DNA of 64,000 nucleotides. Source: Branchiostoma floridae. Taxonomy: Eukaryota; Chordata; Leptocardii; Amphioxiformes; Branchiostomatidae. A program made the position numbers and the translations under genes. Positions 607 to 33,857 of the stretch are shown here, one piece after another; positions within the stretch are counted from its first letter, which is position 1, and each line of letters begins with the position of its first letter. Below the pieces are notes generated by a model. The model worked only from the letters and a program-made list of their open reading frames with translations. It was not told the DNA's origin and ran no database searches. The stretch covers positions 15,855,711 through 15,919,710 of the forward strand of contig NC_049994.1 of NCBI RefSeq assembly GCF_000003815.2, in the 5' to 3' direction.

Positions 607-3600
607 ATGGCTCAGGCAAATCCCGATGCGCTGCATCCGGACCGGAAGTGCGTTCCGAAATCCCGGAATCCGAATCCTATGTACGCGCCAAACTCCGTTC
701 ACACTGACTTAAATCCGACGCGAGGGCCGGATTCTCACCCTGAAGGCCGTGGCAATAATGAGGACTGTGCCTTCACCCAACCGTGTACTGGTGGTGAAAC
801 GCACCAGAACAGCTATAAAAACTCCTATAGACCAGCCAGCAATGATAACAATGGCTATGTCAAGCCACATGAGGATGGTGATAATGCTAACCCCGGCAAC
901 CCCGGCATTCATCACCATCACGGTACATGTGAAGAAGCTAAACCAGCCGAGGCCAGGCCAGATAACAATTCTGGTGATTCCTGCCTCCGGTCATGTGCTG
1001 TTACACTTGAAAAGGAAACTGCCTTTGGATCAGCTGACAGCAAAACCAATCCCTGTGCTGTCGTCAAGCCAGAAGCTGGTAGATTCCAAGACAATATCGT
1101 CGAATCAGCTGACAATGATGGTAACCCCTGCATCAAATCGTATTCAGTTAAGAACCAGGAAGACGATGGCACAGATGTCGGGCCAGCCGACTGTGAAGTT
1201 ATCCAGCCATACGCTGTGAAGTACCAAGAGCATGACGACAGTAGTAATGATCGCCCACACCCAGGAACCGATGCTGTAACTGAAAACGGACAAACAGCAA
1301 ACATTGCCCCTGAAGAAGACGACATTCAGCCATATGCTGTCGCATACATGGACCAGGATGACATGGCGTGTGCCACAACGTCAGGGGACAATCACGCCCA
1401 AGCTAGACTGTCCTTGCATACACCAACGACGGCTCCAAACAGCATCAATGATGTCTTGGCCAACCCATTGAGCAACGATGCAAATCCTGCTAGTCTTGTC
1501 AGTGAGGAAAGGCAACAGGTCCAGAATGCGCTTCATCTGAATCCGGTGCCCGTGCCAAACGTTCGCCATCCTGCAGCCTGCAGTAAGTTATATTCATATT
1601 TCAAAACATTTGGATATTCGCACGGTTAATACATCCTCCTAACGCAGGAACATCCAACAGCGAAACCGCCTGTCTGGATGTACCCTGCTCTTTCAGCCGT
1701 CACCCTTAGTTCCTGACCGAACTGCTTATGAATATTAATGTGCTTACCCTTATAAATGCGGGATCCCTTTTGAAAACTGAAAGGTCTATTCTCTGATTGG
1801 CTGACAGCTGGTTTGGGGGGACGCCCACAGGAACTAAGAATGACGGCTTAGAAAGCAGGGTACATCCAAACAGACAGTTTCGCTGTTGGATGTCCCCGTA
1901 TAGGAGGATGGGTCATTTGGATGAAGACAGACCTTGGATGACATTTAGAAGTTTATACAAGATCAAAACAAATTTGTTTTGTTTTCTTTGAGAAGCTACA
2001 CCATTTGTATTTGCATCCTTATTGTAGCCACTCACTCACTCATTCTCCTGTATGTGGTGCATAGAGCCGACTGAATGTACCACGGTTCTTCACCGCCCTC
2101 TGCTCGATGCTGCTGATGGAGTGTGATGTTGATACTACGCAGATTGTAGCCAAGGGCTAGAAATTAAACTTCTGTAAAGAAACATTTTCCTTAAAATAAC
2201 TCTTTAGATTGGGATAACGCTTACTTTTGATAACATTGCTGTTAATGTGATTTTTTTTAGTTTGTCACCTGGTGTGCTCAGCTGTAACCACGGCTACAGT
2301 TTTTGTGTTGTGCATCGTCAGCGGAATCTTTCTCTGGCCACTCCATAACTATAGCACCAACCCACCAACGGTACGCTTCTGTTCGTTTCTTTGTGTTTGT
2401 TTGTTTGTTTGAATCTCTGTTTATTCATGAAATCTCAAATCGGCCTACAGGTCGCTTTTCACTGAGGTTATAAGGGAAGAGGGAAGAGTCAGACAACTTA
2501 TATAACAAGCATTCTGTGTTATAGCCATATAATTTGTTGCTTTGTAGACCATTAGTGAAGGCAGCTATTTTCCCTATGAGTTCCTATATGCTTCATACTT
2601 ATCTAAACACTCCATGGATTTTTATGTTTGTTAAATCCATCAGTGTGCTTGTAACAAACCTAATTTCATTTTTGCTATGTAGACTAATGGATGTAACAAA
2701 TATAAGAAGCCATGCAGGATATGAATATTATCATTATTAAGGTGAACCAATGACTAGATAACCCTCTATCTACAGCCGACAGGAACGCTGGCTACTACCT
2801 TTACCTCTGGTCCGACTGGATTCTATAGTTCTATCCCCACACCGCCGGCAGTCTCCAACAGCTCACAACGTACAGGTGAGACAAGCCCGAACCTTCTGGC
2901 TCAGGGCTCGAAGTACGTTTTTCTGCGTACCTGCCCTGTTGCAGGTAACATTGAAAATCACCTGCACCAGGTAAATTTTACCTGTACCACTCTAAAACTG
3001 TTCAGGAACCATTGCTATATTTTCTTTTATACTTTAAATATACGTGGTAACAGTCCGAGGAGAAAATTACAATCCATATACACCTGCATCATAGGACATT
3101 TATGTATAAAATCCAGTACATGGACCAGTGCAGGTTAGGCGCAGGTAGACACCAGAATTTGACCTGCACTAACCTGCATATGCAGGTGATATTTCGAGCC
3201 CTGCGGATGTGTTGGCATAAATGGTTAATCTTGGGCAGTGTGGTGGTATGGGAAGTACCTTTGGGTCATAGTGTCCAGACATTGGATACTTCACAAGATC
3301 ATTTCCTGTGGGGAGTTGCGAAGGCTGTATTTATCAACAATAATGCTGTTATATTGTTAATTGCTTCTCAACAATATTCATCAACCTTCCACTTAAGACC
3401 CCAGTGATACTATATAATTACCAGACCTTTCTAAGCCCTAAAACAGTTTACCAAGTGCAAGTTACTTTTTAGTCATGTTTCAAACCTAGAGACAACAGAT
3501 GAGAAATAATGATTTCACAAAGAAGTTAGCTTGAAGAACAACAAGCCCAGGATATAAAAGCAATGACAACAATGACTCGATATCTAGTGTCAGATCGCGA

Positions 3601-4760
3601 TCGCCTAGAAGGCACGTTCAACAGAACCCCAGTTTATAATGGTTTCTTTGACCACGGGTAGAAACTTGAGCCCTGAAAATTACAATTTGTATTTCAAGAC
3701 ATAAAAATAGCAAAGCCAATTCAGCTGTGAGGAAGACATTTTCAAGTTGTAGTTACACATAGACAATTTGATAGGACTGATTTGAAAGTGGAAATTTGAA
3801 CAAGGTTGATTTAAAAAAATCTAAATTTGCAGATGGCATAGACTACATAAAATATTTGAAATGCGAGTGAGTATTGCACTCACAATTTGTGTCATTGTTA
3901 TTATTACGTTTGTTACAGAAATTCACAACAGAAAGATGCAGATGATCACCTTTGGTGGGAGAGGAACAGAACCTGGAAAATTCAAAACCAACTATGGAGT
4001 GGCTGTGTCTGATGACGATGAGATGTTTGTGACTGATCTTTTTAACAATCGAGTTCAAGTCTTCAGCATAAACGGGACTTATGTCCGCCTCTTCCCAACG
4101 ATAGTGCCGGATGAAAATTGGGGAATGTTCCCCTTCAGCGTTGCTATGGACGGGGAACCAGGCTACCTGTGGGTAGTGGGGAGTAGGACTGCATATCATC
4201 CTGAGTCACATGTCGTTCAGTACAGTAAGAACGGCCTGCCCATAAAGAAGTTCGGTGTACGCTTCGTGGGTCGGGTATTCCATCCCTGCATTGCCTTAGA
4301 CGTGCGCAACAACAAAGTAATCGTGGGAGAGGGGGATGCAGTAATGCTGTTTCACCCGAATGGCTCTCTTGTTCGGAGTTTTCAACTGTTAGACAAAAAA
4401 GGAATAAAGCGGTTAATCCGCGGAGTCGTATCGGACAAGGAGGGAAATATTTTGCTTACGGACTCATACAAAAGCATTGTGAAGTACAGTCATTCTGGAG
4501 ACAAGATGTTGGAATTTGGAACCAAAGAAGGACTGCTTGCACCAAAAGGTATTGTTTTGGACTCCTCGGGTCACATCATCGTGGCATACAGTGGCAACAA
4601 CAGGGTAGACATGTTCACAAGCCGCGGGGAGTTTGTCCGTACTGTCGCGAACATTACACACCCGTGGGGTCTCGCCATGGGACCGCATGGACAGTTGGTG
4701 GTGACTAACTCACTTGACGGCACTGTAACCATCTTTCCACGCCACATGGTGTTTCCCTGA
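607..4760 (+). CDS. NHL gene A: type II membrane NHL-propeller protein
   Basis: Four-exon model: 607-1582, 2261-2370, 2776-2875, 3919-4760 (675 aa). All junctions are GT-AG with compatible phases 1, 0 and 1. Exon 1 is a polar, probably disordered region with one NPMY motif near residue 24 and degenerate copies of a motif whose best forms are QPYAVKYQEHDD and QPYAVAYMDQDD; the pre-membrane NPxY of its paralogues is NPVP here. Exon 2 encodes one hydrophobic segment (about residues 335-352). Exon 3 is a short Thr/Pro/Ser stalk with an NSS sequon. Exon 4 is an NHL domain with six repeats, including GVAVSDDDEMFVTD and GHIIVAYSGNNRVDMF. There is no RING or B-box, so it is not a complete TRIM2/3 protein. 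No signal peptide is visible, suggesting N-in, propeller-out topology. The ligand is unknown. The start Met is uncertain because the 5' flank runs into a gap and differs from genes B and C. Confidence 0.75.
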
Positions 4761-4989
4761 TACTCTACAGAATGGGAGACAGCGCTCTGACACAGCCCAG
4801 ACACAATAGTTGCTCCTGACACTCCTTTCCATTACTGACATAAGACATTTACGTACTAGTTCTACCTTGAGGTGAAAACTAGGTACACTTGTCTAACAAT
4901 TCACTCTTTTCTCTTTGTCAGTGATAAATGCTGTCTAAGCCATCCCACTAGCTTTGTTTTCACGTATTGCGTAAAGTTTTTACGTATGA

Positions 4990-5600
4990 AGTGGCACAGG
5001 CTTGTATATCAATGGCAGGTGGTCACTTCCACAGGTTTGATCGTATAATAATAGCCAGGTGGTCCTTATGAAGAGGTGGTCACTCGTACAAGTTTGACTG
5101 TATATCAATGGCCAGGTGGTCCTTATCTAAAAGTAGTTACTTGTACAGGTATGACTTTATGTCAATGGCCAGGTGGTCCTTATGTAGAGGTGGGCCGCAT
5201 GCACAGGTTTGATTGCATCACAATGGCCAGGTAGTCAGTCGTACAAGTTTGACTGTATATCAATGGCCAGGTGGTCGTTATGTAGAAGTGGTCACTTATG
5301 AGGGTTTACTGTATTAAATATCGATGGCCAGGTGGCCCGTATGTAGAGATGGTCACATGCACAGGCCTAGGTTTGCGAAAAGTTTTGACTTATGAATAAG
5401 CAGTCAACAGGGTTGCATATCAGTGTCAGGTGGTCACTTACACAGGTTTGATTGTATAATAATGGCCAGGTAGTAACTCGTACAAGTTTGACTGTGTGGT
5501 CAGGTGGTCATTATGTAGAAGTGGTCAGTATACGTATGGCTCTTCATCAATGGCCAGATACGTAATCTGTATGTTGAAATGGTCACATGTACACAAGTTG
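4990..5600. repeat. Minisatellite downstream of gene A
   Basis: Irregular tandem units built from two subunits, one carrying TGGCCAGGTGGTCCTTATG and the other GTACAAGTTTGACTGTAT, vary in order and spacing. The same minisatellite recurs at about 6238-6470 and, longer and more regular, at 14110-14830 after gene B. It therefore belongs to the duplicated gene-plus-spacer unit. No coding potential is seen. Confidence 0.85.
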
Positions 5601-7500
5601 TACTTAATATGAATATTCTACCAGCGCAAAAACATCAGTTTGAGTCTAGAGACGAATACGTTGGGCGAGTTCACTTCGATAATTCCCAGGGGAGGGAAAC
5701 TTAATGGGAATTCTAAATTCATAGAGACACATTTTGTAATTGTCTTCACAAAACCGCCCCAGTGAATGTAATCTAACCACTTATAAGAGTTATCGTTAAA
5801 TCTCGTGAACATTAGAATGTGGCCCTTTTTTACAGTGTTAAAGTCTCAATTTGTTTATTCAATATTTTTGGACGCCTACACACATTGTGTCTCGGCCCTG
5901 GCTGAGTCTCATGATCAGTTGTACTGCTGAGTGCGAGCCGATTCCAGAAGCTTTACCGTAAGTAAGAATTGTCTCAATCCTGTTTTAACTTAAAGGATCT
6001 CTTGCCAATTTATACGATCCCAATTTATAGGATATTTGTTCTTACTGATCTGAAGTAGAACCACATTCGTATGTTTGTTTGTTTGTTTGTTTGTTTGTTT
6101 GTTTGTTTATTCTTTATTAAACCAGGGTAAAAGTATGTCGCCTGAATTTGCATATCAATGTTAAGTGCGTATGGACTATTCCTTGGGCATTTACATGCCA
6201 TTTTCCTTCATGAATGAATGAGCGGTGCGAATTGTTTACATCAAGTGGTCACTTGCACATGTTTGTATATCAATGACAGGTGGTCCTTATGTAGACGTAG
6301 TCTCTTGTACAGGTTTGATTGTGTAACAATGGCCAGGTGTAGTCTCTCGTACACGTTTGACTGCATATAAATGGCCAGGTGGTCCTGTACAGGATTGACT
6401 GTTTATCAATTGCCAGGTACGTGATCCTTATGTTAAAATGGTCACATGTACACAAGTTGTACTTTATATGAATATTCTACCAACGCCAAAACACCAGTCC
6501 GCATCCAAGGACGAATAAGTTGGGCGAATCCACTTCGATCATTCCCAGAGGAGGGAAACTTAACGCCATGGGAAATCCAAATTTATTGAGACGTAATAAG
6601 TTTGTAATGTCTTCACAGAACTGATCCAGTGAATGTTTTTCAACTACATATTAGAGTTATCGTCAAGTCTCGTGACTAGGGCTGGGTACCGGTACAGAAA
6701 ATTCAGGTCCAGGTCCGGTTCAGGTCCAAAGGATTAGGTCCAGGTCCGGACCTGAACCTGGAACTGATGTAGTATGACTCATGCCAATGGTCCATTTTAC
6801 TACAAAGAAATCTGTTTGGTGGAGTACTAGACTTACACTGGCGTTTTAAAATCCTACAACGCTAACTGCACCTGTACGATTGGCTGTAAAACTTGGTAGA
6901 AATTACTATAAATTCTACTCTACTTCACTCTTCTTATTTTCTTCCATCTGCAAGCGCTAAAACGTGTGAATGCCTGATAAAATAATCTGTTAATTTTCGA
7001 ATCGGTCCAACATCCGGTCCACCTAATTTTTTCAGGTCCGGTTTTTCTGGACCGGTCCAATAAGAAAAACCGGTTTTGTACCGGTACGCAGTACCGATAC
7101 CCAGCCCTACTCGTGACCATTAGAATGTGCCCCTTTTGACAGCACAGTGTTCAAGTCTCAATTTGTTTATTCAATATTTTTGAACGCCTACACATATTAT
7201 GTCTAGGCCATGACGGAATCTCATGATCAGTTGTGCTGCTGGGTTCAATCCGATTCAAGAATTTTACCGTAAGTACAAAATGTTACAATCCTTTTTTGTT
7301 TTTATCTTGTTGGAGCTAGGTCCTGTCACGTTATAACAAAGGATAACTTTAAGAATCTCATGCCAATTTATAGGATGCCAATTTTATAGGATATTCTTAC
7401 CGATCTGAAGTAGAAACACATTCGTATGTTCCATTCTTAGGGCATTTACATGCTATTTCCATGTTCTAAGTTCATGAACGAATCAATGGTGCAAATTGTT
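5600..7500. repeat. Spacer block duplicated within the A-B interval
   Basis: The block from about 5600 to 6240 (marked by AATATGAATATTCTACCA, a TTGGGCGAG segment, TATTCAATATTTTTG and CTGATCTGAAGTAGAA) recurs at about 6460-7500 and again after gene B at about 14820-15400. Copy 1 carries a (GTTT)n tract near 6075-6110. Copy 2 is interrupted by a MITE at 6677-7109. The remainder to 7985 is AT-rich spacer that also aligns with the spacer before gene C. No exon is supported. Confidence 0.8.
6677..7109. mobile_element. hAT-like MITE with 8-bp target duplication
   Basis: A 433-bp element starts TAGGGCTGGGTACCGGTAC and ends with the inverted counterpart GATACCCAGCCCTA. Direct repeats CTCGTGAC at 6669-6676 and 7110-7117 flank it. 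An 8-bp duplication and TAGGG termini fit non-autonomous hAT elements. The interior is rich in GGTCCGG / CCGGTCC words and encodes nothing convincing. The homologous spacer block at about 5795-5820 lacks the insertion. Confidence 0.85.
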
Positions 7501-7984
7501 TACATCAAGTAGATGTTACAGTATCTCTGTTCTGATAAATCAACAAACCTGTAACGCAGTTTCAACAGCACTGTTATCATCATCATACAAAGGGGATCTT
7601 CCGTTGACTAAATTTCCCCGCGAACGTAAATTTGTACACAAAGAAGGAATTCAAAACTAATGACCGTTTAACCACAAGTAAGCAAAAAATGTACCATATC
7701 AACATAGCAAGTTGTTTCAATACAGTAGGTGTATCTGATTTTATGAAGTACCGCAGATTTTATGAAGTACCGCAGGCCTAAGCTATACTATGACGACGTT
7801 TCACATGAGCAATCAACAATGTCCCTTTGGAGAACTGTTCAGATGAACGTTAAGTTTATGTATACACACCACGAAAAAATGGAAATCTGTGGCCAGAGGC
7901 TAGCGTACTCAGTAAAGATGCAATATACCAACTTGTGATGAATTCCAAAAACAACGTCAGGCAAAAACAACATGTCAGCTGCAA

Positions 7985-8334
7985 CTCCAACAAGTTTTTC
8001 AAATCTTAGCATTGATATGAATTGTCTGGCATCAGAAGATGACTCGTGGGCAGCTTCATCTACATAGTGATTAATTTGTTTGTCTGACCTTCGACGTTGC
8101 ATCGTTTTGTTTTCAGTGGGCGGTGAAACTACTACAGTGCACACAGTCAAATAGGATTTGGGATTTTAAAAAATCGTTCACGTGTACTGCACACACAATA
8201 GTCAACGAAGTAAAAGAAAGAGACGTCGAGTAGCGCGATAAGGTTTGAAACTTTGGAAAAAAGCCACGGAATCGGAGCAAAGAGCTGTCTGTTATCACCG
8301 GCAGGTACCATATACTTTACATCAAAATCGCACC
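7985..8334 (+). promoter_or_regulatory. Conserved 5' flank block of NHL genes
   Basis: This block contains TGATATGAATTGTCTGG, AGAAGATGACTCGTGGGC, TTTTCAGTGGGCGGTGAAAC, ACAGTGCACACAG and AGAGACGTCGAGTA. It is repeated before gene C, where it is itself tandemly duplicated, and in partial form near 20640 and 21175 before the pseudogene. Conservation at the same place in each unit suggests promoter or 5' UTR sequence, but shared descent from the tandem duplication could explain it without function. Confidence 0.5.
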
Positions 8335-11300
8335 ATGTCATCAAGAGGTCTCGAAGCCATGGCTGAAGATTTATCCTCCGACGCCATCTTCTTGAATAAA
8401 CTTATGCCAAAACCAACTGCAGAAGCTGCACAGCCTCTCTCCATGCAAGCTGCCGGAGGAGGCAATCTCCACATCCCAGGTAAATGTGAGGGAAATGAAC
8501 AAGACGACGATGACCAAGGCGCTATTAAAAGCGATGCTGCAGTTGAGACCAGTACTGGTGACACATACCCTATAGCATACATATGCGAGGATGGCAGTAC
8601 ATGCAGAATGAAGAAAACGTCGGAGGAGACGAAAACTGAACCCTTTCGGGCAAAGAAGACAACCAGCAAGAATAATAACGACATGAACGTGGCATATAAC
8701 GATAGTTTCAAGGAAACTGACAGTAACATGCACACGAAGGCCAGGGATCAAAATCCGATGTACACACAAGGCACCATGAATCCTCCAAACGACATTACTT
8801 TTAACTCGATGTACACTCAATGCACCATGGACGTTATTCCAAACCCGATGTACACACAAAGCTCCATGAACCCTCCTCCAAACCAAGTTTCTCGTAATCC
8901 GATGCACAGTCGAAGCATCATGACCCCTCTGCCAAACGAAGACAATTCTAACCAGATGTACACTCAAAGCAAAATCAACCCTTCTCCAAACGACGTTACT
9001 CTGAACCCGGTGTACACACAAAGCACCACCAACCCTTCTCCAAACGACGATACTCCTAACCCAATGTACACACAAAGCACTATGAACCCTCCTCCATACG
9101 ACGATACTCCTAACTCGATGTACACACAAAGCACTATGAACCCTCTTCCAAACGACGATACTCCTAATCCGGTGTACCTACAAAGCATCATGGCCATGGA
9201 GCCAGATGTCAGCCCTGGACAAGCCTCCAAGTCAAACAACAGTGATGGCAACTTCTGCACTCAGCCATCAGCTGATACACGTCAGCAAGGTGATGAAGTC
9301 ACCTTTATACCTGCTACCAACGATGGCAAACAACTGAAAAATGGTGATGAGGAAAGTGTCGTTGAGGCAGCAAACAATGAGGACATCAAGCCGTATGCAG
9401 CTAAATACCAGGAAGACGACGAACCCGCTACTGAGTCAATTGGATGTGATGCTATCCAGCCTTACGCTGTTAAATACAAGGAACGTGATACTACAGCTGA
9501 AAACGGACAAACAGATAGTATCACCTCTGATGATATAGACATTAACCCATATGCTTCCGCATACATGAACCAGGATGTCATAGCGGGTGGTACAACGTCA
9601 GGGGACAATCAACCAACAGCGGCTCCAAACAGCAACAATGATGTCTTGGGCAACCCATCGAGCAATGATGCAACAAATCCTACTGATGTTGTCAGTGAGG
9701 AAAGGCAACATGTCCCGCATGCGCTTCATCCAAACCCGTTTTACGTGCCAAACGCCCAGCATTCTGCAGATTGGGGTAAGTTGTTCCTTGATGATGATAA
9801 TGATGATGATGATGGTGATGATGATGATATGATGATGATGATATTTCAAAGCATTTGGTCAATCTCTCGGTTTTGTATGCCAAATGGTTTCAAGACAGAG
9901 CTTGACTTGCAGTTAAATTTATGAAAGATGACAACAAGTCATTTATCAGGCTGGACGTTCTGTTTGTGAAGCTATACCAAGCTTAAATGCCGAATCTCCG
10001 GAGAGAAATTCTTTGTCATCAATACTTAAGCTTTTATTGATTGTCTGTTTATTATTGAGATGCCTTTTTTTCTTTTTATACAATTCATTTAAAACTGAAG
10101 TGGCTCATATGTAATGCTATGATAATCTTTTTTTGTAACGTCCAATGTTTCAGAATGTACACGTCAGCAGGTATGCTCAGTTCCAACAGCGGTTACAGTC
10201 GTTGGTCTATTCATCGTCAGCGTAGTCTTTTTCTGGCTATTCTTTGATACCAACACACCAGCGGTAAGCTTCCGTCTTGCAGCCTTGGGTCTTTGTTGCT
10301 TCGCTGACCTTTTTTTTAAAGAAAGGTTTTGTCCCAATTTCGGCCGTCGTTTGGATAATTCATTAAAATGAAACTATGACAATATTGTTAAATAGCGCGG
10401 AGTCTTCCTCTGGCTATTCTTTGATACCAACACAAAAACGGTAAGCTTCCGTCTTGGAGCCTTGTCTCTTTGTTGCTTTGCTGACAATTTGTTGAGATGT
10501 TTCATTACAATGATTCAAATATTATATCGTTTAGATACTTTATTACAATGAAACTATGAAAATGTTGCGCAACAGTTGACAGATGCTTACATCTGTCAAA
10601 ATTCAACCATGGGCTAGATACTCTTACCGGATGCGGATGTATCAATGACAATGACAATGAAGTTTATTGCATTTTCATGCCCCATTATATTGGGGCTAAA
10701 TGCAGTCAGTTTGGTACATATGGATTAATTGAAAAGCTATACGTATACTACAGTTTATATGCTTCTTCTCTAATCTTAAAACATGCGTGGACGAACTCAC
10801 AGAGTTTTTCCAGTATATCGGAGTTAGATGATGACATAAGGTATTTGAACACATCTTTCCTCAACCTACAGCCAACAGTGACTGTGGATACTACCTTTAT
10901 CTCTGGTCCCACTGGTGTCCCCACTCCACCGGCAGTCTTCAACAGCTCACAACATGAAGGTGAGATTGACACCCAAAGTGCATCTAAGTGTGTTCATATG
11001 AAGAGTACAAGTTGGATAGAGTACCTCAGAGTCTGTTTCACTGTGTGTCAAGATATCGGGCACTAAACGAGATTATATTTGGAATATTCCGGACACAATT
11101 TATTATTTATTGCAGAAAACCACCAGGGACCGACTGGATGCTGCAGGTTTAACTCCTCAACGACGGCAGTCTCCAATGGCGCCCAACCTGCAGGTAAGCC
11201 TTGCAGGAAACAGCACGTACCGTTGCTCAGGTCAGAATTTCTTGAGTGAGAGTTAAGGAATTTTTATGTATACAGTAGAAGCCGCTTAATTGCACACCCA

Positions 11301-11433
11301 ATTTGCCAGCGCATTTCGTGCAAGTATCCGGGAGGTGCAATAATGTTAACTTAGTGGACCGTACATGTTTGGGATTTGGGGATTCCGTGCAATAAACAGA
11401 AGTGTGCGGTTATCCGTTAACTGGCCTCTACTG

Positions 11434-11478
<45 letters not shown>

Positions 11479-13706
11479 GAACATATATATTGTTCATGTT
11501 GGCATCCATCAGTCGCTCGCCGTCTGCCTGGTCTGCACGTGACTTTTGAAGGTGAAGGATCCGGAGGTGTGTGCACTTCCTTCTCCACCCTTTCGTGTAC
11601 TGGCGCACCATTTAAGTCCCACAGGGACAAGACTTGCATTCCACGTGTAAGACGGCCCCAGCAGATGCAGGTTTGGTGTTCGGAGTTTCCGTCTCCTAGG
11701 AGGACTTCCGACGAAGGATGCAAGGGGTTCCTCCTACCCCTGACTCGTGTATAGCTGGTGCGTCATGCCCGAACATGCCCCTATGGCCTGCCACTGCCAC
11801 AAAGGCCTGTCATTGCCACTAGCCACAGCTAGCTACTCATTTACACTTGAGTTGAGTGAGGAAAGTCGTGTAAAGTGCCTTTTTTATAGGTGTAGTCAGT
11901 CACCAATAGAAGAATGAATAACTGAAAAACTGTAACTGAAAGTCATTTATGCCACGCGTCGAAAGATACGCCCCCCCCCCCTCTCGTGTTCACTATAACA
12001 CGTCCGGTAACTTTCTAGCGAAGACCAATTAGATCGCTGCTGGCAGGTCAACGGCATTCCTAAAGCCCCCTTTACAAATCAAGAATTTAGCTCGGGCGGG
12101 TTGTCAGCGAGCTCTAAATTACGAGGAGGTATGACCCTGATGCCGACGAAGAAACTCTGCCATTTGTGCGTAGGCATCAGGGTCATGACTCCTCGCCATT
12201 GAGAGTTCACTGCCCACGCATGCTATGTGAATATATGTCTACAAATGCCGCTATTTGTGCAGCAATCTGTAGGAGCCTGGTAGAAGCTAAGACCTTCCTA
12301 CGGACGTAGATATATACGTTCACGTGAACCCGNNNNNNNNNNNNNNNNNNNNNNNNNNNNNNNNNNNNNNNNNNNNNNNNNNNNNNNNNNNNNNNNNNNN
12401 NNNNNNNNNNNNNNNNNNNNNNNNNNNNNNNNNNNNNNNNNNNNNNNNNNNNNNNNNNNNNNNNNNNNNNNNNNNNNNNNNNNNNNNNNNNNNNNNNNNN
12501 NNNNNNNNNNNNNNNNNNNNNNNNNNNNNNNNNNNNCGGCCGAGCTAAATTCTTGATTTGTAAAGGGGGCTTAATGAATAAGGCAGTAACTGTCGAGTTG
12601 CGAGCGTACCATTCCTTATCATGTAGATGTAATGAACCTAGCAGTTATGTATATATAAAGTGGAAGCCAGTTAATTGCACAACGGATAATCGCACACTTC
12701 AGTTAATTGCACGAAATCATTAAGTCCATTGGTGGTGCGGTCCAGCTTAATAACTTCGCTTTGCTGCACCATTCGGATAATTGCACGAAATGCACTGGCA
12801 AATGGGGTGTGCAATTAAACGGCTTTTACTGTACCATTCTTTTCACTTCTTGCAGCAAATCATGACAGAAAGATGCAGGAGGTCATCTTTGGTGGGAAAG
12901 GAGAAGAACCTGGAAAATTCATAACTAATTACGGAGTGGCCGTGTCAGCTGACAATGAGATATTTGTGACTGACTTATTTAACAATAGAGTTCAAGTCTT
13001 CAGCATAAATGGGACTTATCTCCGTCTCTTCACAACGGTAGTGCCGGGTAGAGATAAGAAAATCCATCCCTTAAGTATTGCTATTGACGTGGATCCTGGC
13101 TACCTGTGGGTAGTGGGGAGTAGAGATATATTTCCCACCGATACTGATGCACTTGTCGTTAAGTACAGTAGGGGCGGACTACCCGTAAAGAAGTTCGACG
13201 TACGGTTCGTGTGCCGTTATCGCCATCCCAGCCTTGCGATTGACGCGCGCAACAACAAAGTTATCTTGGGAGAGGGACATACAATAATGATGTTCCAGCC
13301 AAATGGCTCGCTCGTTCGGAGTTTTGAAGTGTTCAGCAAAGAGATTACCCATAAACTAGTCGGCGGAGTCGTGTCGGACATGAAGGGAAATATTCTGCTT
13401 ACGGACTCCTATAGAAGCATTATGAAGTACAGTCATTCTGGAGAGAAGATATTGGAATTTCAAACCAGTGGAGGCCAACTGCTTGACCCTGAAGGTATTT
13501 GCGTGGACTCCTTGGGTCGCATCATCGTAGCAAACAAAGCCCAAAACAGGGTGGATATGTTCACAAGCCGCGGGGAGTTTGTCCGTACTGTCGCGAACAC
13601 TACACACCCGTGGGGTCTCTCCATGGGACCGGATGGACAGTTGGTGGTGACTGACCCATTTGGCGCCACTGTGACTGTTTTTCCACGCCACATGGTGTTT
13701 CCGTGA
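8335..13706 (+). CDS. NHL gene B: type II membrane NHL-propeller protein
   Basis: Five-exon model: 8335-9775, 10154-10263, 10872-10959, 11116-11193, 12856-13706 (855 aa). All junctions are GT-AG and in phase. The start at 8335 is chosen because MSSRGLEAMAEDLS aligns with gene C; an in-frame ATG at 8245 lies in the conserved non-coding 5' block. Residues about 140-281 hold some nine units of about 20 aa with core NPMYTQSTMNPPPNDD. NPxY is a known PTB/endocytic signal class. Three KPYAAKYQEDD / QPYAVKYKERD / NPYASAYMNQD motifs follow at about 353-408, then NPFY before the membrane exon. TM residues are about 490-511 (VTVVGLFIVSVVFFWLFF). Two short stalk exons carry NSS/NST sequons. Exon 5 is a six-repeat NHL propeller with NGT, NGS and NTT sequons. 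Intron 4 contains a gap and three transposon-like elements, so a further small exon cannot be excluded. Confidence 0.8.
8750..9190 (+). repeat. In-frame coding minisatellite (NPMY units, about 60 bp)
   Basis: Within gene B exon 1, about eight to nine direct repeats of roughly 48-63 bp carry the words ATGTACACACAAAGCA and CCTCCAAACGACGATACTCC. They encode NP(M/V)Y-T-Q-S-(T/I)-M-N-P units; some copies read NSMY, NQMY or NPMH. The last units are the most alike, suggesting recent expansion. Gene C has only three or four such units and gene A one, so tandem expansion or contraction has tuned copy number among paralogues. Confidence 0.9.
10372..10500 (+). pseudogene. Partial duplicate of gene B membrane exon
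   Basis: The segment from about 10394 to 10485 repeats the last 40 or so bases of the TM exon (CTGGCTATTCTTTGATACCA), its splice donor (GGTAAGCTTCCGTCTTG) and the start of the intron. It lacks the front half of the exon and any acceptor in the right place. It is a non-functional exon relic in intron 2. Confidence 0.8.
11271..11435. mobile_element. MITE with TACAGTAG termini (Tc1/mariner-pogo type)
   Basis: A 165-bp element starts TACAGTAGAAGCCGCTTAAT and ends with the inverted CTGGCCTCTACTGTA. Flanking TA is consistent with a TA target duplication. A diverged copy lies at about 12659-12833 in the same intron. An (AT)n microsatellite follows at 11436-11480. Confidence 0.7.
12064..12571. mobile_element. 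Foldback element spanning an assembly gap
   Basis: AGCCCCCTTTACAAATC at 12064 is matched by inverted GATTTGTAAAGGGGGCT ending at 12571, and the arms extend through GAATTTAGCTCGG. TAA on both sides suggests a 3-bp target duplication as in PIF/Harbinger-like MITEs. Inside are a nested hairpin (TGACCCTGATGCC with GCATCAGGGTCA) and a CCTGGTAGAAGCTAAG word shared with the 18.5-kb and 47.8-kb elements. The middle (12333-12536) is N, plausibly because the palindrome could not be assembled. Confidence 0.7.
12659..12833. mobile_element. Second copy of the TACAGTAG MITE
   Basis: CCAGTTAATTGCACAA at the left and GCAATTAAACGGCTTTTACT at the right resemble the ends of the 11271-11435 element, with repeated AATTGCACGAAAT words between. 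The right end lies about 20 bp before the NHL exon acceptor of gene B, so it probably contributes to the polypyrimidine/branch-point region. Confidence 0.65.
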
Positions 13707-13789
13707 TACTTTGCAGACTGAGGTAATAGTAGTAGTTCCTTACACTCCTTTCTATTACCCAAAACATACATGTATACAATAGCTTTACC

Positions 13790-13970
13790 AGTGAGACGTT
13801 GGGTCTCGCCATGGGACCGGATGGACAGTTGGTGGTGACTGACCCATTTGGCGCCACTGTGACTATATTTCCACGCCACATGGTGTTTCCTAGATACTCT
13901 CCAGTATGTGAGACACCGCTCTGCCACACCTCAGATACTAGTAGCTCCTGACACTCCTTTCTATTACCCA
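13790..13970 (+). pseudogene. Duplicate of the terminal NHL repeat of gene B
   Basis: About 13798-13894 repeats the last blade of the propeller (GGTCTCGCCATGGGACCGGA to CCACGCCACATGGTGTTTCC). The following 3' flank (GACACCGCTCTGCCACACC, AGCTCCTGACACTCC) is closer to the tail of gene A than to that of gene B. It lies 3' of the real stop and is not translated. It marks an unequal exchange or conversion end between units. Confidence 0.8.
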
Positions 13971-14109
13971 CATAACATAATAAGATACTTAGTACTAGTT
14001 CTACCAGCGAGTCGAGAACTGGTTCCGCTGGTCTTCAGAGTTCTATTTTCTCTTTGTCAGTGATGAATGCTGTCTGAAGCATCCGATTCTGTTTTGACTT
14101 ATTGCGGAA

Positions 14110-14830
14110 AGTTTTGACTCATGAAGAAGTGGTCACTAGCACATGTTTGCATATCAATGGCAGGTGGTCCTATTGTAGAAGTGGTCACTTGCACAGGTTT
14201 GATTGTATAACAATGGCCAGATGGTCCTTATGAAGAAGTTGCCACTTGCACAGGTTTGATTGTATAACAATGGCCAGGTAGTTACTCGTACAATTTTGAC
14301 TGTATATCAATGGCCAGGTGGTCCTTATGTAAAAGTGGTCTCTTGCACAGGTTTGATTGTATAACAATGGCCAGGTAGTCACTCGTACAAGTTTGACTGT
14401 ATATCAATGGCCAGATGGTCCGTATGTAGAAGGGATCACATGCACAGGTTTGATTGTATAACAATGGCCAGATGGTCCTTATGTAGAAATGATCACATGC
14501 ACAGGTTTGATTGTATAACAATGGCCAGGTAGTCACTCGTACAAGTTTGACTGTATATCAATGGCCAGATGGTCCTTATGTAGAAGTGATCACATGCACA
14601 GGTTTGATTGTATAACAATGGCCAGATGGTCCTTATGTAGAAGTGATCACATGCACAGGTTTGATTGTATAACAATGGCCAGGTAGTCACTTGTACAATT
14701 TTGACTGTATATTAATAGCCAGGTGGTCCTTATGTAGAAGTGGTCACTTGTACAGGTTTGACTGTTTATTAGGTACCTGATCCTTATGAGTTATGTTGAA
14801 ATGGTCACATGTACACAAGGTGCACTTTAT
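14110..14830. repeat. Minisatellite downstream of gene B
   Basis: This is the same repeat as after gene A. GTTTGATTGTATAACAATGG occurs at about 14196, 14254, 14350, 14448, 14505, 14600 and 14658. Spacings alternate near 57 and 96 bp, giving a higher-order unit of about 153 bp. The rest of the spacer to 15845 is the duplicated block also found between genes A and B. Confidence 0.85.
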
Positions 14831-15844
14831 ATGAATATTCAACAATGCCAAAACATCTGTCCACGTCTAGTGACGAATAAGTTGGGCGAGTCCACTTCAA
14901 TCACTCCCAGAGGAGGGAAACTTAACGCAATGGGAATTCTAACTTTATTAAGACATAACTTGTATGATTGTGTCTTCACAAAACCGACCCAGTGAATGTT
15001 ATTTAACTACTTATTAGAGTTATCGTCAAATGTCATGACCATTAGAATGTGCCCCTTTGTGACAGCACAGTGTTCAAGTCTCAATTTGTTTATTCAATAT
15101 TTTTGACCACCTACACATATCATGTCTCGGCCCTGAGTCAGTCTCATAATCAGTTGTCCTGCTGAGTGCTAGCCGATTCTAGAAGCTTTACCGTAAATAC
15201 TGAATCCTTGTTCTTTATCGGATGTACAACTTTCTCATGCCAATTCATAGGATGCCAATTTATAAGATATTTGTTCTTACGGATTCGATGTAGAAACACA
15301 TTCGTATGTACTATTCCCAGGACATTTACATGCTATTTTATTTGGTGCAAATTGTTTACATCATGTAGTTATATCCGATCTTCTGAAGGACCACAAATAA
15401 ATTAACAAACCTATACATGCCTTTCAACAACACTGTTATCGTTATCATACAAAGGGGATCTTCCGTTAAGTAAATTTCCCCGCGAACGTATATTTTTCCA
15501 CAAAGAAAGAAAAACGAAAAATGAATGACCGTTTAACCATAAGTTAGCAAAAAAGTACCATATCAACATAACGAGTTGTTTCAATAGAGTAGATGTATCT
15601 GATTATATGAAGTACCCCAGGACTAAGCTATACTATGATTTCAACGCGACGTTTCACATGGGCAATCAACAACTTTGGGGAATTGTTCAGATTAACTTTC
15701 TAGAAGTTTCCACACCACGAAAAATGGAAAAATGTGGCTAGAGGAAACTGTATTCAGTGAAAGATGCGGTATACCAATTTGTGACGAACCCTAAAACAAC
15801 ATCAGGTAAAAACAACATGTCAGCTGCAACTCCAACAAGTTTTT

Positions 15845-16490
15845 CAAATCTTAGCATTGATATGAATTGTCTGGTATCAGAAGATGACTCGTGGGCTGCT
15901 TCATCTACATAGACATTAATTTGTTCGTCTGTCCACTGACGTTTTCAGTGGGAGGTGAAACTAATACAGTGCACACAGCCATACAGCATTCGCGATAAAA
16001 ACTGTTCACGTGTACGGCACGTAAGATAATCAATGAAGTGAGAAGAAAGAGACGTCGAGTAACGGGAAGGTTTGAAACCTTGGAAAAAGACCACAGAATT
16101 GTTGCAAAGAGCTGTCTGTTATCACCGGCAGATACCGCATTCTTTACATCATAATCGTAACGTTCTTCCAATCTTTGCACTGATATGAACTGTCTGGTAT
16201 CAGAAGATGACTCGTGGGCTGCTTCATCTACATAGAGATTAATTTGCTTGTCTGTCCATTGACGTTTTCAGTGGGCGGTGAAACTAATACAGTGCACACA
16301 GCCATACAGCATTCGCGATAAAAACTGTTCACGTGTACGGCACGTAAGATAATCAATGAAGTGAGAAGAAAAAGACGTCGATTAACGGGAAGGTTTGAAA
16401 CTTTGGAAAAAAATCATAGAACTGGGACTGCCTGATTCGACAGGCAGATACCACATTCTTCATTCCTCACATCAAAATCGTAACGTGCCG
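15845..16490 (+). repeat. Tandemly duplicated 5' flank of gene C
   Basis: Two direct copies, about 15845-16168 and 16169-16490 with an offset of about 320 bp, each contain CTGGTATCAGAAGATGACTC, AGTGCACACAGCCATACAGC and CACGTGTACGGCACGTAAGA. Gene B has only one copy. If the block is a promoter, gene C has two. Confidence 0.85.
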
Positions 16491-16508
16491 TCCAGAGGTC
16501 TCGAAGCC

Positions 16509-19500
16509 ATGGCTGAAGATTTATCCCCTGATGCCACATTTTTGAGTGAAAGTATAGCAACACCAGGTGCAGAGGCTGCGCAGTCTCTCTCCAGGTAAGC
16601 TGGCGGAGGTGGCAATCTCTACATTTCCGGTAAATCTGAGGAAGATGAACAAGAAGATGAACAAGAACTCTCTATAAAATGCGATGCTTCAGCTGAGAAC
16701 AGACAAACGATCAACATCAGTGCTGGTGATTTTGATACTTACGCCATTGCATACATATGTAAGGTTGATAGTGCATGCAGCATGAAGAAAACATCGGACG
16801 AGACGAAAACGGAACCCTTGGTGTCCAACAATGATAACAACATGAACTTGGCAGGGAACAATGGTACTGACACTTTCAAGGGTAACACGCGCAGTAACAA
16901 GTCCAGGGATCCAAATCCAATGTACACACATAAAAACACGGACCCTTATCTGGTGTCCACCCCAAAAAACGTTAACCCTAATCCGATGTACCTGCCAAGC
17001 ACCATGAACCCCCCTCCAAACGAAATTAACCCTAATCCGATGTACCTGCCAAGCACCACGGAGCCAAACGTCAGTCCTGGACCCGCCTCCAAGTCAAACA
17101 ACAACGATCGCTGCATCCAGCCATCAGCTGATAACAGTCAGCAAGATGAAGAAGCCAAGTTAACGCCAGCTAACAACGAAAATGCTTGCCTTCAGCCGTA
17201 TGCTGTTACAAAACTGCAAGATGAGGAAGTGGACACTGTTGTTGAGAACAATCACTGTATCCAACCATATGCTTTTAGATGCATAAAACGTAATAAAACC
17301 GTCTTAAAATCATCTAACTGTGATGCCGCCAAGCCCTATGCTTTTGGATACCAAGAAGATGACTTCGACTCAGCTAAGAGCTGTGGTTATTCCTGCACCC
17401 AACCATATGCTGTTAAATACCAGGCAGACGATGGCACTGATGTCGGGCCAGTTGACTGTAGTGTCATCCAGCCATATGCAGTTGGATACCAGGAACATGA
17501 TAATGATTATCCACTTCCAGGGACTGATGTAACAGCCAAAAATGGACATACAGCCTCACTCGGTATAAATTCTGATGATGTGGACATTAAACCATATGCT
17601 GTTAGATATCAAGAACATGACGATAGTGGTAATGATAACCCATCCTCAATAACTGATGCCGCCTCTGGTGATGACGAAGTCGACATTACACCGTATGCTA
17701 CCGCATACATGGACCAGGATGACATGGCGTGTGGCACAACTTCAGGGGATACTCAAACAAAGGACCCATTCCAGAAGCGGACAGATGCTACATACAGCAA
17801 CAACGATGTCAACGATGCTTTACATCGGAATCCGATGTATGTGCCAAACGCTCAACGACAGGAAGCTTTCGGTACGAAATTTTTACATTTTAAAGCCCCT
17901 GTCCTGCTGATAATCATTTTGTATTTTGCCCTTCTTAGCTGGTTAATTAATCAGATCAGTAAAACTTGACATATTTTGTTCTCAATCATAGTCGATATGC
18001 AATAGGATAGTTTTATCTAAACTTACTGTGTGTAAAAAATTATTTTAAGATTGAATTTGAAAATTGTTTAAGGCCCTAAAATACATTGGGTTCCTTTGAT
18101 ATTTTCTGTTCAACGCTTTGAAGGCGTAATATATTTTCCAGGGTGTGCATATGGCCGGCTGGACCGGGTACTGAAGCCAGCTGCAGTCCTAACGCTTTTC
18201 ATCTCCGCTGGAATCTTTTTCTGGTTATTCTTTACCTATACCACATCAGTGGTAAGTTGTGTATTCCGGACTTGTCTTGTTGTCCCTTTCCTGCCGATTA
18301 TGTCCGTTGATTTGTTTAGTACTACCAGTTCCTGAATATTTCAGACAATACATGTTGATCTTGTACAAATAGGGTCCAAATGAATGCAGCATGTTGACAT
18401 TTGAATAGAAATGCATAGGGTAGAAGCGTTACATACCTTAAGCCGGGTTCACGTGCACGTATATATCTATGTCCGTATGAAGTTCTTAGCTTCTACCAGG
18501 CTCCACAGCTTGCTGCAAAAATAGGGGAAATTGTAGAAATATAAACACATAACATGCCAGCGGAGTTAACTGGCCGAGGATTCAGCTGATTCCACTGGCA
18601 TGTTATCTGGCCGAATTATCTAGCGACCTGTGGAGCCTGGTAGAGGCTAGGACTGACATCATATGGACTCGAATATATACGCACTCAAACATTGATCTTT
18701 TCACATGCCACAATCTGGCCAGTGTTCAGATGACATGATATTAAAATATATCTCCAGCCGTCAGCGACAATGGGCACTGCACTCACAACTGGTCACTCTA
18801 CTCCGGACACTGCCCCAACCCCTGGCCATTTTGCTCCGGACACTTCCTTCACCAGTGGTCACACTCCTCTGGACAGCGCCCCCACCACTGGTCAGCCAGC
18901 CTGTTGCAGTTCCAACAGGACGACCATCAGGACGGCATCTTCTGAGGGAGCAGCACCCAGACAGAAGTCGTCGGTCTCCTACGAGTCACAACATGAAGGT
19001 GAATCTATTTACTGTGTGTGGGGGGGGGGGGGGGGGTATTTTTCCCGAGCAAAAACCCTGTTTCGCCACCGTTTCCCCTGTTGGGTCCTTTGGGCCTTAC
19101 TCTTCGCAAGAAATTCAGCTTGTCTCAATCATGATGTTTTTGACCAGAAGAGATGCTGTTAGGTACAATTTAACCCGTAACCTTGTAGTGACCTTCGGGT
19201 CACACCTTGAAATGACCTTCAGCCCTTGTTACGTGGTGACCATTAAGTAAAAAAAAAACATATCAAAGAAGCGCCAAATCGTTGTAAATGTCTCTTGGTT
19301 GTGTAAAAATGCACTTAATCGACGAATCGGATGGTTCTATCTACAGAAGTGACTCTACTTATTTCTGAAATTAGTGGAATATTAATCTTCCAACCCTTGT
19401 ACTGTTACAACTGTCCAAGTCTAATGCCTGGTCATACGTTATAGACTGTTTCATTTGCTAAATAAAGATTATAAATCATTACAGTAAACCATGGCAGATA

Positions 19501-20329
19501 CAAGACGACGAAGACAACCTTTGGTGGGAGGGGCAGAGACCCGGGAAAATTTGGCGAGATCTCTGGAGTGGCCGTATCTCCCGATAATGAGATATTTGTG
19601 AGTGACTCTCAAACCAACCGTGTCCAAGTCTTTGACATGAACGGGGCCTTTCTCCGCAGCTTCACGATACTGCCGTCAGATATATACTGTATAGTAAACC
19701 CTGCTGATATTGCAGTTGACGGAAAAGGCAACATATGGGCAGTTGATCCGAGTATCTTTGCCAGTTCCTGTCCGCATGTTGTAGTGCAGTATAGTCGAGA
19801 CGGCCGGCCAATGTCCAAGTTTAAGGTGGGCTTTAGTCGAAGTACTGTTCCATCTGCACACATTGCTGTTGACGTACGCAATGACAAAATCATCGTCGGA
19901 GAGAAAGATGAGATAATGATATTTGAACCCAACGGCTCGCTTGTTCGTAGGTTTGTAGAAGCGAACCTGAAAATGGGTGGCGTCACGTCGTCCATGGCGG
20001 GAAATGTCCTGGTTACGGACTACGTTAGCAAAGTCATGGTGTACGATTCCTCAGGCGTCTTATTATCTAAATTTGGAATCTGGGGAACCATACAAGGAAA
20101 ACTATGGACACCCCTAGGGATTTGTGTGGATCCCTTGGGTCGCATCATTGTGGCAAACAATGTGAACAACCGGGTAGACATGTTCACAAGCGGCGGGGAG
20201 TTTGTCCGTACTGTCGCGAACATTACAAACCCGTGGCGTATGGCTATGGGTTCGCATGGACAGTTGGTGGTGATTAACGTGAAAAACAGCAATGTAAGCA
20301 TCTTCCTGCGTCACAGGGTACTTCCTTGA
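16509..20329 (+). CDS. NHL gene C: type II membrane NHL-propeller protein
   Basis: Exons: 16509-16594 (tentative first piece), 16781-17871, 18142-18251, 18758-18998, 19485-20329. If translation instead starts at ATG 16782 the product is 761 aa. The ATG aligned with gene B's start is GTG here, and the next in-frame ATG is 16509. TAA at 16596 interrupts that frame, but the same change makes an AG|GTAAGC donor that can join in frame to the AG before 16781. The N-terminal region has three NPMY units, seven PYAVxY-type motifs (for example QPYAVGYQEHD, KPYAVRYQEHD) and NPMY before the membrane exon. TM is VLTLFISAGIFFWLFF, preceded by R, R, K and followed by no basic residue, so the N terminus should be cytoplasmic. 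The stalk has three TxGHxxPDTAP-like repeats (mucin-like). The NHL domain has six repeats. Confidence 0.75.
17164..17720 (+). repeat. PYAVxYQEHDD tyrosine-motif array in gene C
   Basis: Seven irregular units, each ending in a (Q/K/T)PYA(V/F/T)x(Y) motif followed by acidic residues, lie 22-36 aa apart. Gene B has three units and gene A two good ones plus decayed ones. The last unit (TPYATAYMDQDDM) is a conserved distinct form in all three genes. Conserved tyrosines in an acidic, disordered, probably cytoplasmic setting suggest phosphotyrosine or adaptor docking. The canonical ITIM spacing is not met. Confidence 0.8.
18440..18690. mobile_element. Foldback element with CCTGGTAGA arms
   Basis: AGCTTCTACCAGGCTCCACAG at about 18488-18508 is inverted at 18628-18648, and GAATATATACGCA / CACGTATATATC words extend the symmetry outward. 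It lies in intron 2 of gene C and is related to the elements at 12270-12330 and 47814-47968. Exact ends and a target duplication could not be fixed. Confidence 0.6.
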
Positions 20330-21279
20330 TGTGAGAAGACCAGTGAAGAAAGAATCGATCTGACATTTGTAAATATAGTGTGCATCACTCATCACTTGTG
20401 TCAAATTGCTATTGGTCATGGGTGAGCAGACATTTGTTATCAGTAGAAATCTAAACCCACTTGGGAGATTAACATTTTTTATTTCTTTTACTTTTTTAAA
20501 GTTTTGTGTTACACTAACCGTTTTCGCATACTGATTGGTGCTGTTTTCGCATAGTGATTCGTGCGCATCACATAAGATTCGTACGAATTTTATAAGGTTC
20601 GTGCAAAAGCTTAGGTACCCCTGATGACAACCGAGAAGGTTCTTCCCTGATATGAATTGTCTGGTATCAGAAGGTGACTCGTGGGCTGACAGATTGGTTT
20701 TTGTTTTCTTGGGGCTTGATGTAGATGACATGAAGATTGCTTTTTGTCTGTATTAGACACTTTGGCAGGATGATTGACGTATAGATTTTTTTCGTGGGGG
20801 CTCAGTCTGTATGAAGATTGGTTTTGTCTGTATCAGACTCGTGGGCTGGATGATTTACATATGGATGATTTTTTTTCGTGGAGGCTCAATCGGTATTGAA
20901 GCTGTCAAAATTTGTAACTTTATCTCACGTGGCACCAAAAATGAATAAACAAACAAACCTATGTTAGAATTACCATTAACTATACTGTCTAAGAAAGTCT
21001 TGCGAAGCTAAATATTCCCCGAAAGGAAAGAATGGACAATCTAAAGACTAAAGAATCTAAAATTTATCAAGAGAAATATCATAGCATATCAGAATCGCAA
21101 ACAATACAACATGTCAACAACTACCCAGCCAGGGTATCAATTACTCTGAGCACTTGTATAACATGTATCTTAGCGCTGATATGGATTTTCTGGTATCCGA
21201 AGAGGATCCGTGACCAGCTCATTTACATACAAATCAATTGCTTTTAAATTAGTCTGGCGACGTTACCATTTTTTCAGTG
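20330..21279 (+). other. Spacer with relics of the NHL-gene 5' block
   Basis: Fragments of the conserved 5' block occur at about 20647-20685 (TATGAATTGTCTGGTATCAG) and 21175-21278 (GATTTTCTGGTATCCGAAGA to TTTTTTCAGTGG). Between them are repeated GTGGGGGCTCAGTCTGTATG-like words (20790-20900). A short frame at 21032-21247 has a hydrophobic stretch but coincides with the 5' block, so I do not call it a gene. Confidence 0.6.
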
Positions 21280-21863
21280 GACAATCATGGTTATGTACAT
21301 GTTGCAAAATACCATAAGTACGGCCTGCCTATAAAGAAATTTGATGTGAGCTTCATGACTCGCGATCCCCATCCCAGCATTGCGATAGACCTGCGCAATA
21401 ACAAATTTATCGTGGGAGAGGAGATACAATCATGTTGTTCCAGCCTGATGGCTCTCTCGTCAGGAGTTTTAGAGGTTTAATCAAAACGCACAGCGTGTTC
21501 ATCCGTGGAGTCGTATCGAACAGATATGGTAATATCCTGTTCATGGACTCCTATAGAAGCGTTAAGGTGTACCATCACTACGGAGACAAGATATCCGAAT
21601 TTGGAACTGTTGGACGCGGCGAAGGCCAACTGAGGACCCCCACGGGTATCTGTATGGACAAATCGGGTCGAATCATCGTCGCTAATCATGGCCACAACCG
21701 TGTAGACATGTTCACAATCGGCGGGAAGTTTGTCCGTACTGTGGTGAACATTACAAACCCGTGGGGCGTCGCCATGGGTCCGGATGGACAGTTGGTGGTG
21801 ACTAACACATTTACATACACTGTAACTATCTTTCCTGATATATATACTCTTCTAGTGCCCTAA
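21280..21863 (+). pseudogene. NHL gene D: truncated, frameshifted fourth copy
   Basis: The sequence encodes the C-terminal two-thirds of an NHL propeller (KYGLPIKKFDVSFMTRD, then LFQPDGSLVRSF, then GHNRVDMFTIGGKFVRTV, ending at TAA 21861). The frame changes at about 21421-21430 because one base is missing relative to genes A-C between the GGA GAG codons and the ATG of the next strand. No cytoplasmic, TM or stalk exon precedes it: the 5' block joins directly into the middle of the propeller at about 21279, indicating a deletion. A non-functional remnant is the simplest reading. Its stop region also differs from the NFPRHMVFP-type ends of A and B. Confidence 0.85.
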
Positions 21864-33113: not shown

Positions 33114-33857
33114 TCAGGACAAAACAGACTCTTTGACCTTCCCGTCGTCCAATGACATTGGAATCGAACCGTAACTTCCCGGAAGCCCCTTCCCGGGAAT
33201 TTCGTGTTTTTCCTTTGCCTCAACGTCGACCTTCTCCGTTTTAGCCTCAACTAACCTCCTCACAAAGAAACCGGCTACGACAACAAGCACAATCCATATA
33301 GCCTCGTGAACTACCATCATGGACGGACCGGAAATCTGGAAATCATAGTATTGGATCGCCCATGCAATGAAAACAACAATCAAATACATGAACACAAAAC
33401 CAAAGACATAGGCAACGCGACCAAACGTACTCAAAGTAGTGTCTGGACTGCCATTGGTCAATTTTCGTTCTACGTAAAGGCCAAAGGTCACGAGGACGCA
33501 TATGACCATGGCAAAGCCCCAGTTGTTGAAAGGGATGACGATTGGTTCCCAAAGACGGGTCCAGGGGTTGCCGTTTCTGTCAGGGATCCAGCTGTAACAG
33601 TAGAGGATGGCGGGAAGGAAGGCCACGGTAGGGATGACACGTGACCAGGTAGGGAGGTGCTTCCAGAACGGCAGGCCGAACAGCTGGAAACAGAAACAAG
33701 TTCAAGGTCAAATTATCTAAGTGGTAAGATGTACGTTAACGTTACTCTAATATAAGGGCTACGGATTTACTATAAACATTACTTTTCTGTCTGTCTGTAT
33801 GTATAGATGTCTCTGCTGGTGTTCATCTGTGGATCCGTGTGTGTGCGTGTGTGTTTG

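What the first reader, a model, noticed from the sequence alone, without database searches (positions are those of the whole stretch)
607..20329. Tandem family of predicted type II receptors: tyrosine-motif tail, one TM, extracellular NHL propeller
Three neighbouring genes share one exon plan: a long disordered exon with NPxY and PYAVxYQEHDD arrays, a 110-bp TM exon, variable stalk exons, and one exon with a six-repeat NHL propeller. NHL domains are usually cytoplasmic or part of TRIM proteins; placing one outside the membrane behind a tail of repeated tyrosine motifs is unusual. Basic residues before the TM in gene C, absence of a signal peptide and conserved NGT/NGS/NIT sequons support the topology. 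It looks like a receptor family that could signal or be endocytosed through PTB/SH2 adaptors.
Basis: partly seen in the sequence, partly recalled or inferred. Interest (0 to 1): 0.85.

Follow-up and report, generated by a model that had tools for sequence, protein, structure and literature searches.

The report
Lancelet type II NHL-propeller receptors
This stretch of what looks like a lancelet (amphioxus) genome holds three members of a large gene family that appear to encode cell-surface receptors with a propeller-shaped domain outside the cell and a tyrosine-rich tail inside, a combination not seen in the paper listings looked at.

Summary
Confirmed. Genes A, B and C (607-4760, 8335-13706, 16782-20329) share one exon plan: disordered tail exon with NPxY and PYAVxY motifs, 110-bp membrane exon, Ser/Thr/Pro-rich stalk exon, single NHL exon; all joins keep frame. 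The plan recurs genome-wide: of 62 membrane-exon hits, 46 have a tail upstream, 52 an NHL exon downstream, 42 both; opposite-strand controls 0 and 2. The genome looks like Branchiostoma (inferred). Type II topology is supported by basic residues on the tail side (K/R 44 against 4 in 25 exons) and a mucin-like stalk (19 of 23); sequons do not discriminate. The NHL domain models as a six-bladed propeller (pLDDT 91.4), nearest TRIM2/3/71. Its D-A/B-C loops vary most, but also in a coiled-coil NHL control. A related tail lies upstream of a different membrane module and, at one locus, YWTD-like repeats. No RNA, protein or ligand data; signalling through PTB adaptors is inferred. NHL in type II proteins has a precedent in teneurins.

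The parts
607..1582 (+). Gene A exon 1: disordered tail, NPMY and PYAVxY motifs
2261..2370 (+). Gene A exon 2: 110-bp membrane exon
2776..2875 (+). Gene A exon 3: Ser/Thr/Pro-rich stalk
3919..4760 (+). Gene A exon 4: NHL propeller and stop
8335..9775 (+). Gene B exon 1: tail with NPxY array and PYAxxY motifs
10154..10263 (+). Gene B exon 2: 110-bp membrane exon
10872..10959 (+). Gene B exon 3: stalk
12856..13706 (+). Gene B exon 4: NHL propeller and stop; structure modelled on 12858-13703
16509..16598 (+). Gene C former N-terminal coding stretch beginning MAED and ended by in-frame TAA 16596-16598
   Evidence: sequence; compared by eye with gene B and L018
16782..17871 (+). Gene C exon 1 from the first Met after that stop: tail
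18142..18251 (+). Gene C exon 2: 110-bp membrane exon, basic residues on the N side
18758..18998 (+). Gene C exon 3: long Ser/Thr/Pro-rich stalk
19485..20329 (+). Gene C exon 4: NHL propeller and stop
21256..21860 (+). Partial NHL remnant D; no tail or membrane exon found beside it by tblastn
13787..13891 (+). Duplicated fragment of the end of an NHL exon
16069..16158 (+). Tail-exon relic inside a 323-bp tandem duplication (15839-16460)

Best explanation
The three genes belong to an expanded family of type II single-pass surface receptors: a long disordered cytoplasmic N-terminal tail carrying NPxY and I-Q/E/K-P-Y-A-V-x-Y-x-acidic motifs, a membrane helix with basic residues on the tail side, a mucin-like stalk, and one TRIM-type six-bladed NHL propeller outside. 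Most likely mechanism: the variable D-A/B-C loop face binds an external ligand, clustering raises tyrosine phosphorylation of the repeated tail motifs, and PTB-type adaptors binding NPxY drive endocytosis or signalling. Shown by computation: exon plan, family size (lower bound), coding selection, predicted fold, loop-face variation. Predicted: topology. Inferred: surface location, ligand binding, phosphorylation, adaptors.
For: Joined models open over all joins. Genome linkage: 42 of 62 membrane-exon hits have tail and NHL in order; 60 of 76 tail rows (59 of 75 with one split exon merged) have NHL within 16 kb downstream, opposite-strand control 2. NHL exon omega 0.54 over 9 disjoint close pairs. 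N-side flank more basic in 20 of 25 membrane exons, C-side in 1, tie in 4. Mucin-like stalk in 19 of 23, 0 of 23 on the reverse strand at the same score. Model pLDDT 91.4; TM-score (by query) 0.78-0.81 to the ten best matches, TRIM2, TRIM3, TRIM71 and Thin NHL. NPxY and PYAxxY enriched (with the selection noted above). D-A/B-C loops: entropy 2.09 against 1.18 in A-B/C-D loops, 2 of 281 rotations as large; omega 0.77 (0.66-0.89) against 0.49 (0.41-0.55).
Against: Sequon density is not above that of the C17 coiled-coil NHL control (0.81 against 0.65 per 100 aa, p 0.53). The same loop-face order is seen in that control, so it is not proof of ligand recognition. No pooled omega in the family is above 1; single pairs reach 1.93 and 1.1 on the loop face. 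Tail tyrosines are not preferentially conserved. The membrane exons were found by likeness to A, B and C and are paralogs, so 20 against 1 is not an independent count; the membrane stretches of L030 and L031 were not counted. Gene A itself is a tie. Some loci are broken (L030, L032, gene C start). No RNA, protein or ligand data.
Confidence: 0.6

Rival explanations
1. Same type II surface proteins, but adhesion or mucin-like coat proteins rather than signalling receptors; the tail motifs serve trafficking or scaffolding.
For: Mucin-like stalk; no kinase or other Pfam domain in the three tails; tyrosines not specially conserved.
Against: Enrichment of two tyrosine motifs; one face of the propeller varies fastest.
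Confidence: 0.25
2. The NHL exon is a separate cytoplasmic TRIM-like gene and the upstream exons belong to another transcript.
For: NHL fold closest to TRIM-NHL proteins; no RNA evidence for the joins; in gene A an ATG and hydrophobic run precede the NHL exon in frame.
Against: Order and strand kept across tens of loci; exon phases kept in A, B and C; no such upstream start in B or C.
Confidence: 0.05
3. Reversed topology: tail outside, NHL propeller in the cytoplasm.
For: NHL propellers of TRIM proteins are cytoplasmic (recalled); sequons do not discriminate.
Against: Basic residues on the tail side; Ser/Thr/Pro-rich stalk on the NHL side; no signal peptide seen by eye at the N terminus (no predictor run); tyrosine arrays suit the cytosol.
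Confidence: 0.06
4. The three window copies are mostly dying duplicates in a fast birth-and-death family.
For: TAA in C's first exon, remnants at 13787, 16069 and 21256, broken relatives L030 and L032.
Against: A and B are open from start to stop over four exons; pooled omega below 1.
Confidence: 0.1

Closest known systems
Teneurins
   Same: Type II single-pass, N-terminal intracellular domain, NHL propeller in the C-terminal outside part (PMC6428715, passages)
   Different: Teneurins carry EGF repeats and a roughly 2000-residue fold with YD and ABD parts, with a single gene in most invertebrates by the same passages; here one NHL domain on a short stalk, proteins of 675-829 aa, tens of loci
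TRIM-NHL proteins (TRIM2, TRIM3, TRIM71, Thin, Brat)
   Same: NHL propeller among the closest by sequence (gene C) and by fold (gene B)
   Different: No RING, B-box or coiled-coil family found in the tail exons; membrane exon and tyrosine tail instead
LDL receptor family
   Same: NPxY tail and six-bladed propeller ectodomain (recalled)
   Different: LDLR family is type I with YWTD propellers (recalled); the window exons match NHL, not PF00058
Mycobacterial receptor kinase PknD
   Same: Sensor domain is an NHL propeller (1RWL; passage in PMC6107167); cytoplasmic N-terminal part, membrane helix, outside propeller (topology recalled)
   Different: Cytoplasmic part is a Ser/Thr kinase

Membership tests
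TRIM-NHL | C-terminal NHL six-bladed propeller | tested here: met
   (model, not a solved structure)
TRIM-NHL | N-terminal RING, B-box, coiled coil | tested here: not met
   0 Pfam families in the three tail exons at E 0.1
Teneurin | Type II membrane topology | tested here: inconclusive
   Predicted by flank charge and stalk; not shown experimentally
Teneurin | EGF repeats and YD super-fold | tested here: not met
   Only propeller-type families in the tail and NHL exons scanned; joined proteins 675-829 aa
LDL receptor family | YWTD (PF00058) propeller | tested here: not met
   No PF00058 in the NHL exons at E 0.1
LDL receptor family | NPxY in the cytoplasmic tail | tested here: met
   (cytoplasmic side predicted)
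LDL receptor family | Signal peptide and type I orientation | tested here: inconclusive
   Hydrophilic N termini by eye only; flank charge points to the opposite orientation
Receptor kinase of the PknD kind | Cytoplasmic kinase domain | tested here: not met
   No Pfam domain in the three tails
Family described here | Tail exon, 110-bp-type membrane exon and NHL exon in order on one strand | tested here: met

The most novel reading that the evidence does not exclude
The PYAV/NPMY tail is a shared cytoplasmic module that this lineage has attached, in type II orientation, to at least two kinds of six-bladed propeller: TRIM-type NHL (this family) and LDLR-type YWTD on heptad-like stalks. Together they would form a large lineage-specific surface-recognition system with one diversified binding face and a common tyrosine signalling output.
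Probability: 0.35. Interest if true: 0.82.

Novelty: new variant of a known kind. Interest (0 to 1): 0.64.

Why it matters
If the proteins reach the surface, a propeller best known from TRIM proteins has been multiplied as a receptor ectodomain behind a repeated tyrosine tail. Lancelet receptor families such as TLR, NLR, SRCR and C-type lectins are already reported to turn over fast (passages in PMC4284660); this would add another class. It also gives a directly testable system for how one tail module is combined with interchangeable propellers.

Tried and rejected
Sequons as topology evidence: rejected after the control. Family-specific sequon columns exist (B-exon residues 51, 149, 247: 14, 17 and 14 of 26, 0 of 15 in control; 192: 5 of 26), but the control has its own (79: 14 of 15; 269: 8 of 15). 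The control is assumed, not shown, to be cytoplasmic.

Positive selection: no pooled omega above 1 in the family. wrongly included one saturated pair (L010/L031); one search repeats it without that pair. One tail pair has omega 1.22 at dS 0.06.

Other ectodomains behind the same tail: six tails without a listed NHL exon were fetched. Four did have an NHL exon (L030, L031, L032, L034). L029/L051 showed none in about 10 kb. L033/L050 led to the YWTD-like locus.

Stalk search: a first narrow search found 7 of 23; the wider one 19 of 23, with the score line of 7 set after seeing the result (best reverse-strand score 5.5); not found in L015, L018, L028, and L013b was wrongly bounded.

Literature, seen as listings (titles and starts of abstracts): 4 of 4 listed; 11 of 11; 15 of 108; 12 of 75; 12 of 985; 10 of 25; 10 of 217; 8 of 108. 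None listed describes this architecture; unlisted papers were not seen. Searches were on the genome and on PknD. Passages only were read in PMC2575513, PMC3503706, PMC4284660, PMC6428715, PMC12373286 and PMC6107167.

Not done: ectodomains of the other hits, and the search for the L052 tail, because the genome search did not complete.
Full report
What is there. Genes A, B and C lie head to tail on the + strand. Each has a tail exon, a 110-bp membrane exon, a stalk exon and one NHL exon, with the same phases (1, 0, 1) at the three joins. Joined, they give open proteins of 675, 829 and 761 aa. C is counted from the first Met after an in-frame TAA at 16596-16598; in B the matching stretch is open. 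Pfam sees NHL repeats in all three last exons and nothing in the tails.

Genome context. The window is C16:15855711-15919710 of a genome of 513,431,437 bases in 431 contigs. B. floridae has 19 chromosomes (passage in PMC12373286); that this genome is Branchiostoma is inferred from size, contig pattern and recall. Two NHL searches scored 137 of 731 and 138 of 733 candidates, so counts are lower bounds. Of the 137 matches, 48 lie in a C17 cluster at 18.3-18.9 Mb; the other 89 plus 11 new ones (two pieces merged) make 100 NHL exons, of which 67 have a tail or membrane hit within 16 kb upstream. Tail pieces merge to 74 exons; the list adds one and holds one exon on C19 as two rows. On that list 60 of 76 rows (59 of 75 exons) have an NHL exon within 16 kb downstream; opposite strand 2. 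With the shorter NHL list the count was 55 of 74, opposite strand 1. Of the 100 matches (E up to 10), 62 cover the membrane part; 46 of these have a tail upstream, 52 an NHL downstream, 42 both, 6 neither; opposite strand 0 and 2. In 20 stretches fetched from the NHL list, a tail ORF lay upstream in 17 (not L012, L022, L027) and a membrane exon in 18 (not L022, L027). L022's tail and membrane exon lie just outside the fetched stretch; L027 is from the C17 cluster.

Topology. In 25 membrane exons, found by likeness to A, B and C or read by eye (L032, L034), the N side holds 44 K/R and the C side 4; N side more basic in 20, C side in 1, tie in 4, gene A among the ties. L030 and L031 were not counted. 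Between membrane exon and NHL exon, 19 of 23 genes have a Ser/Thr/Pro-rich exon in the right phase, 0 of 23 on the reverse strand at that score. Sequons do not help: 0.81 per 100 aa in 26 family domains, 0.65 in 15 C17 domains, p 0.53, although the positions differ.

Fold and variation. The gene B NHL exon models at pLDDT 91.4 as six blades with an N-terminal closing strand. The ten best PDB matches are NHL domains of TRIM3, TRIM71, TRIM2 and Thin, TM-score by query 0.78-0.81. The sequence search with gene C gives Thin first, a WD-40 repeat protein second, then TRIM71 and TRIM2/3. I set blade boundaries by eye before the model; its strands broadly agree. D-A and B-C loops have mean entropy 2.09, A-B and C-D loops 1.18, strands 1.0; 2 of 281 rotations of the labels do as well. 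Pooled omega over 9 disjoint pairs is 0.77, 0.49 and 0.37. The C17 control shows the same: entropy 1.18, 0.19, 0.35 and omega 0.91 (0.74-1.13), 0.40, 0.50 over 7 pairs. So this is a property of these propellers, not of the receptor setting.

Tail. In 27 tails (9134 aa, some with intron read-through, picked for at least two motifs), 230 of 387 tyrosines lie in NPxY, PYA or PYAxxY; YxxPhi, YxN and YxxM are below shuffled counts. Ten hand-picked tail pairs give omega 0.42-1.22, and tyrosines are as conserved as other residues (84 of 137, 1636 of 2658). This is against strict selection on single tyrosines, though copy number varies.

A second ectodomain. At C11:17.29-17.30 Mb (L033, L050, minus strand) a PYAVRYQEED tail lies about 7 kb upstream of a different membrane module, with an ORF between them that I read as part of a retroelement; then come a heptad-like stalk and two fragments scoring 21.0 and 18.0 bits for PF00058 (cut-off 21). 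That they form one gene rests on position. C15 (L052) has the tail, the module and the stalk; YWTD was not seen in 4.8 kb. The module has at least 150 hits (150 of 325 candidates scored). By eye, four tail exons lie upstream of one (C11 twice, C15, C148). In a typed part, 34 of the 150 hits against 37 of 145 PF00058 hits, chosen by contig after looking, 8 of 34 have a PF00058 hit within 8 kb downstream, opposite strand 0. What the others carry, and whether they have PYAV tails, is open.

Verdict. A real, large family of predicted type II NHL receptors. An NHL propeller in a type II protein is known in teneurins, so the kind is known and the variant new as far as the listed searches show. Function is inferred.

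Noticed in passing
G000 C17:18311196-18906184 (L027, L035-L049): Cluster of 48 of the 137 NHL matches; the ORFs read show coiled-coil-like and EYRGEKPPGGW repeats before the NHL domain. Pfam found no RING or B-box in the one ORF scanned (L037, cut at its 5' end).
   Followed up: partly
C11:17293719-, C15:1435180+ and 148 other places: A second, strongly conserved membrane module, with heptad-like stalks in the two loci read and YWTD-type repeats near some.
   Followed up: partly
window 39786-44621 +: LINE-type element: zinc-knuckle ORF and an ORF with endonuclease and reverse transcriptase domains.
   Followed up: partly
window 30801-31517 + and 33114-33701 -: Two diverged copies, by eye, of a multi-helix membrane protein ORF on opposite strands, no Pfam family at E 0.01.
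   Followed up: no
window 5017-5236, 6297-6418, 14121-14765: Related minisatellite units (GGTTTGACTGTATATCAATGGCCAG) between the receptor genes.
   Followed up: no
window 16596-16598: In-frame TAA inside a CAGGTAAGC context in gene C's first exon; could be a lost start region or a splice donor.
   Followed up: partly
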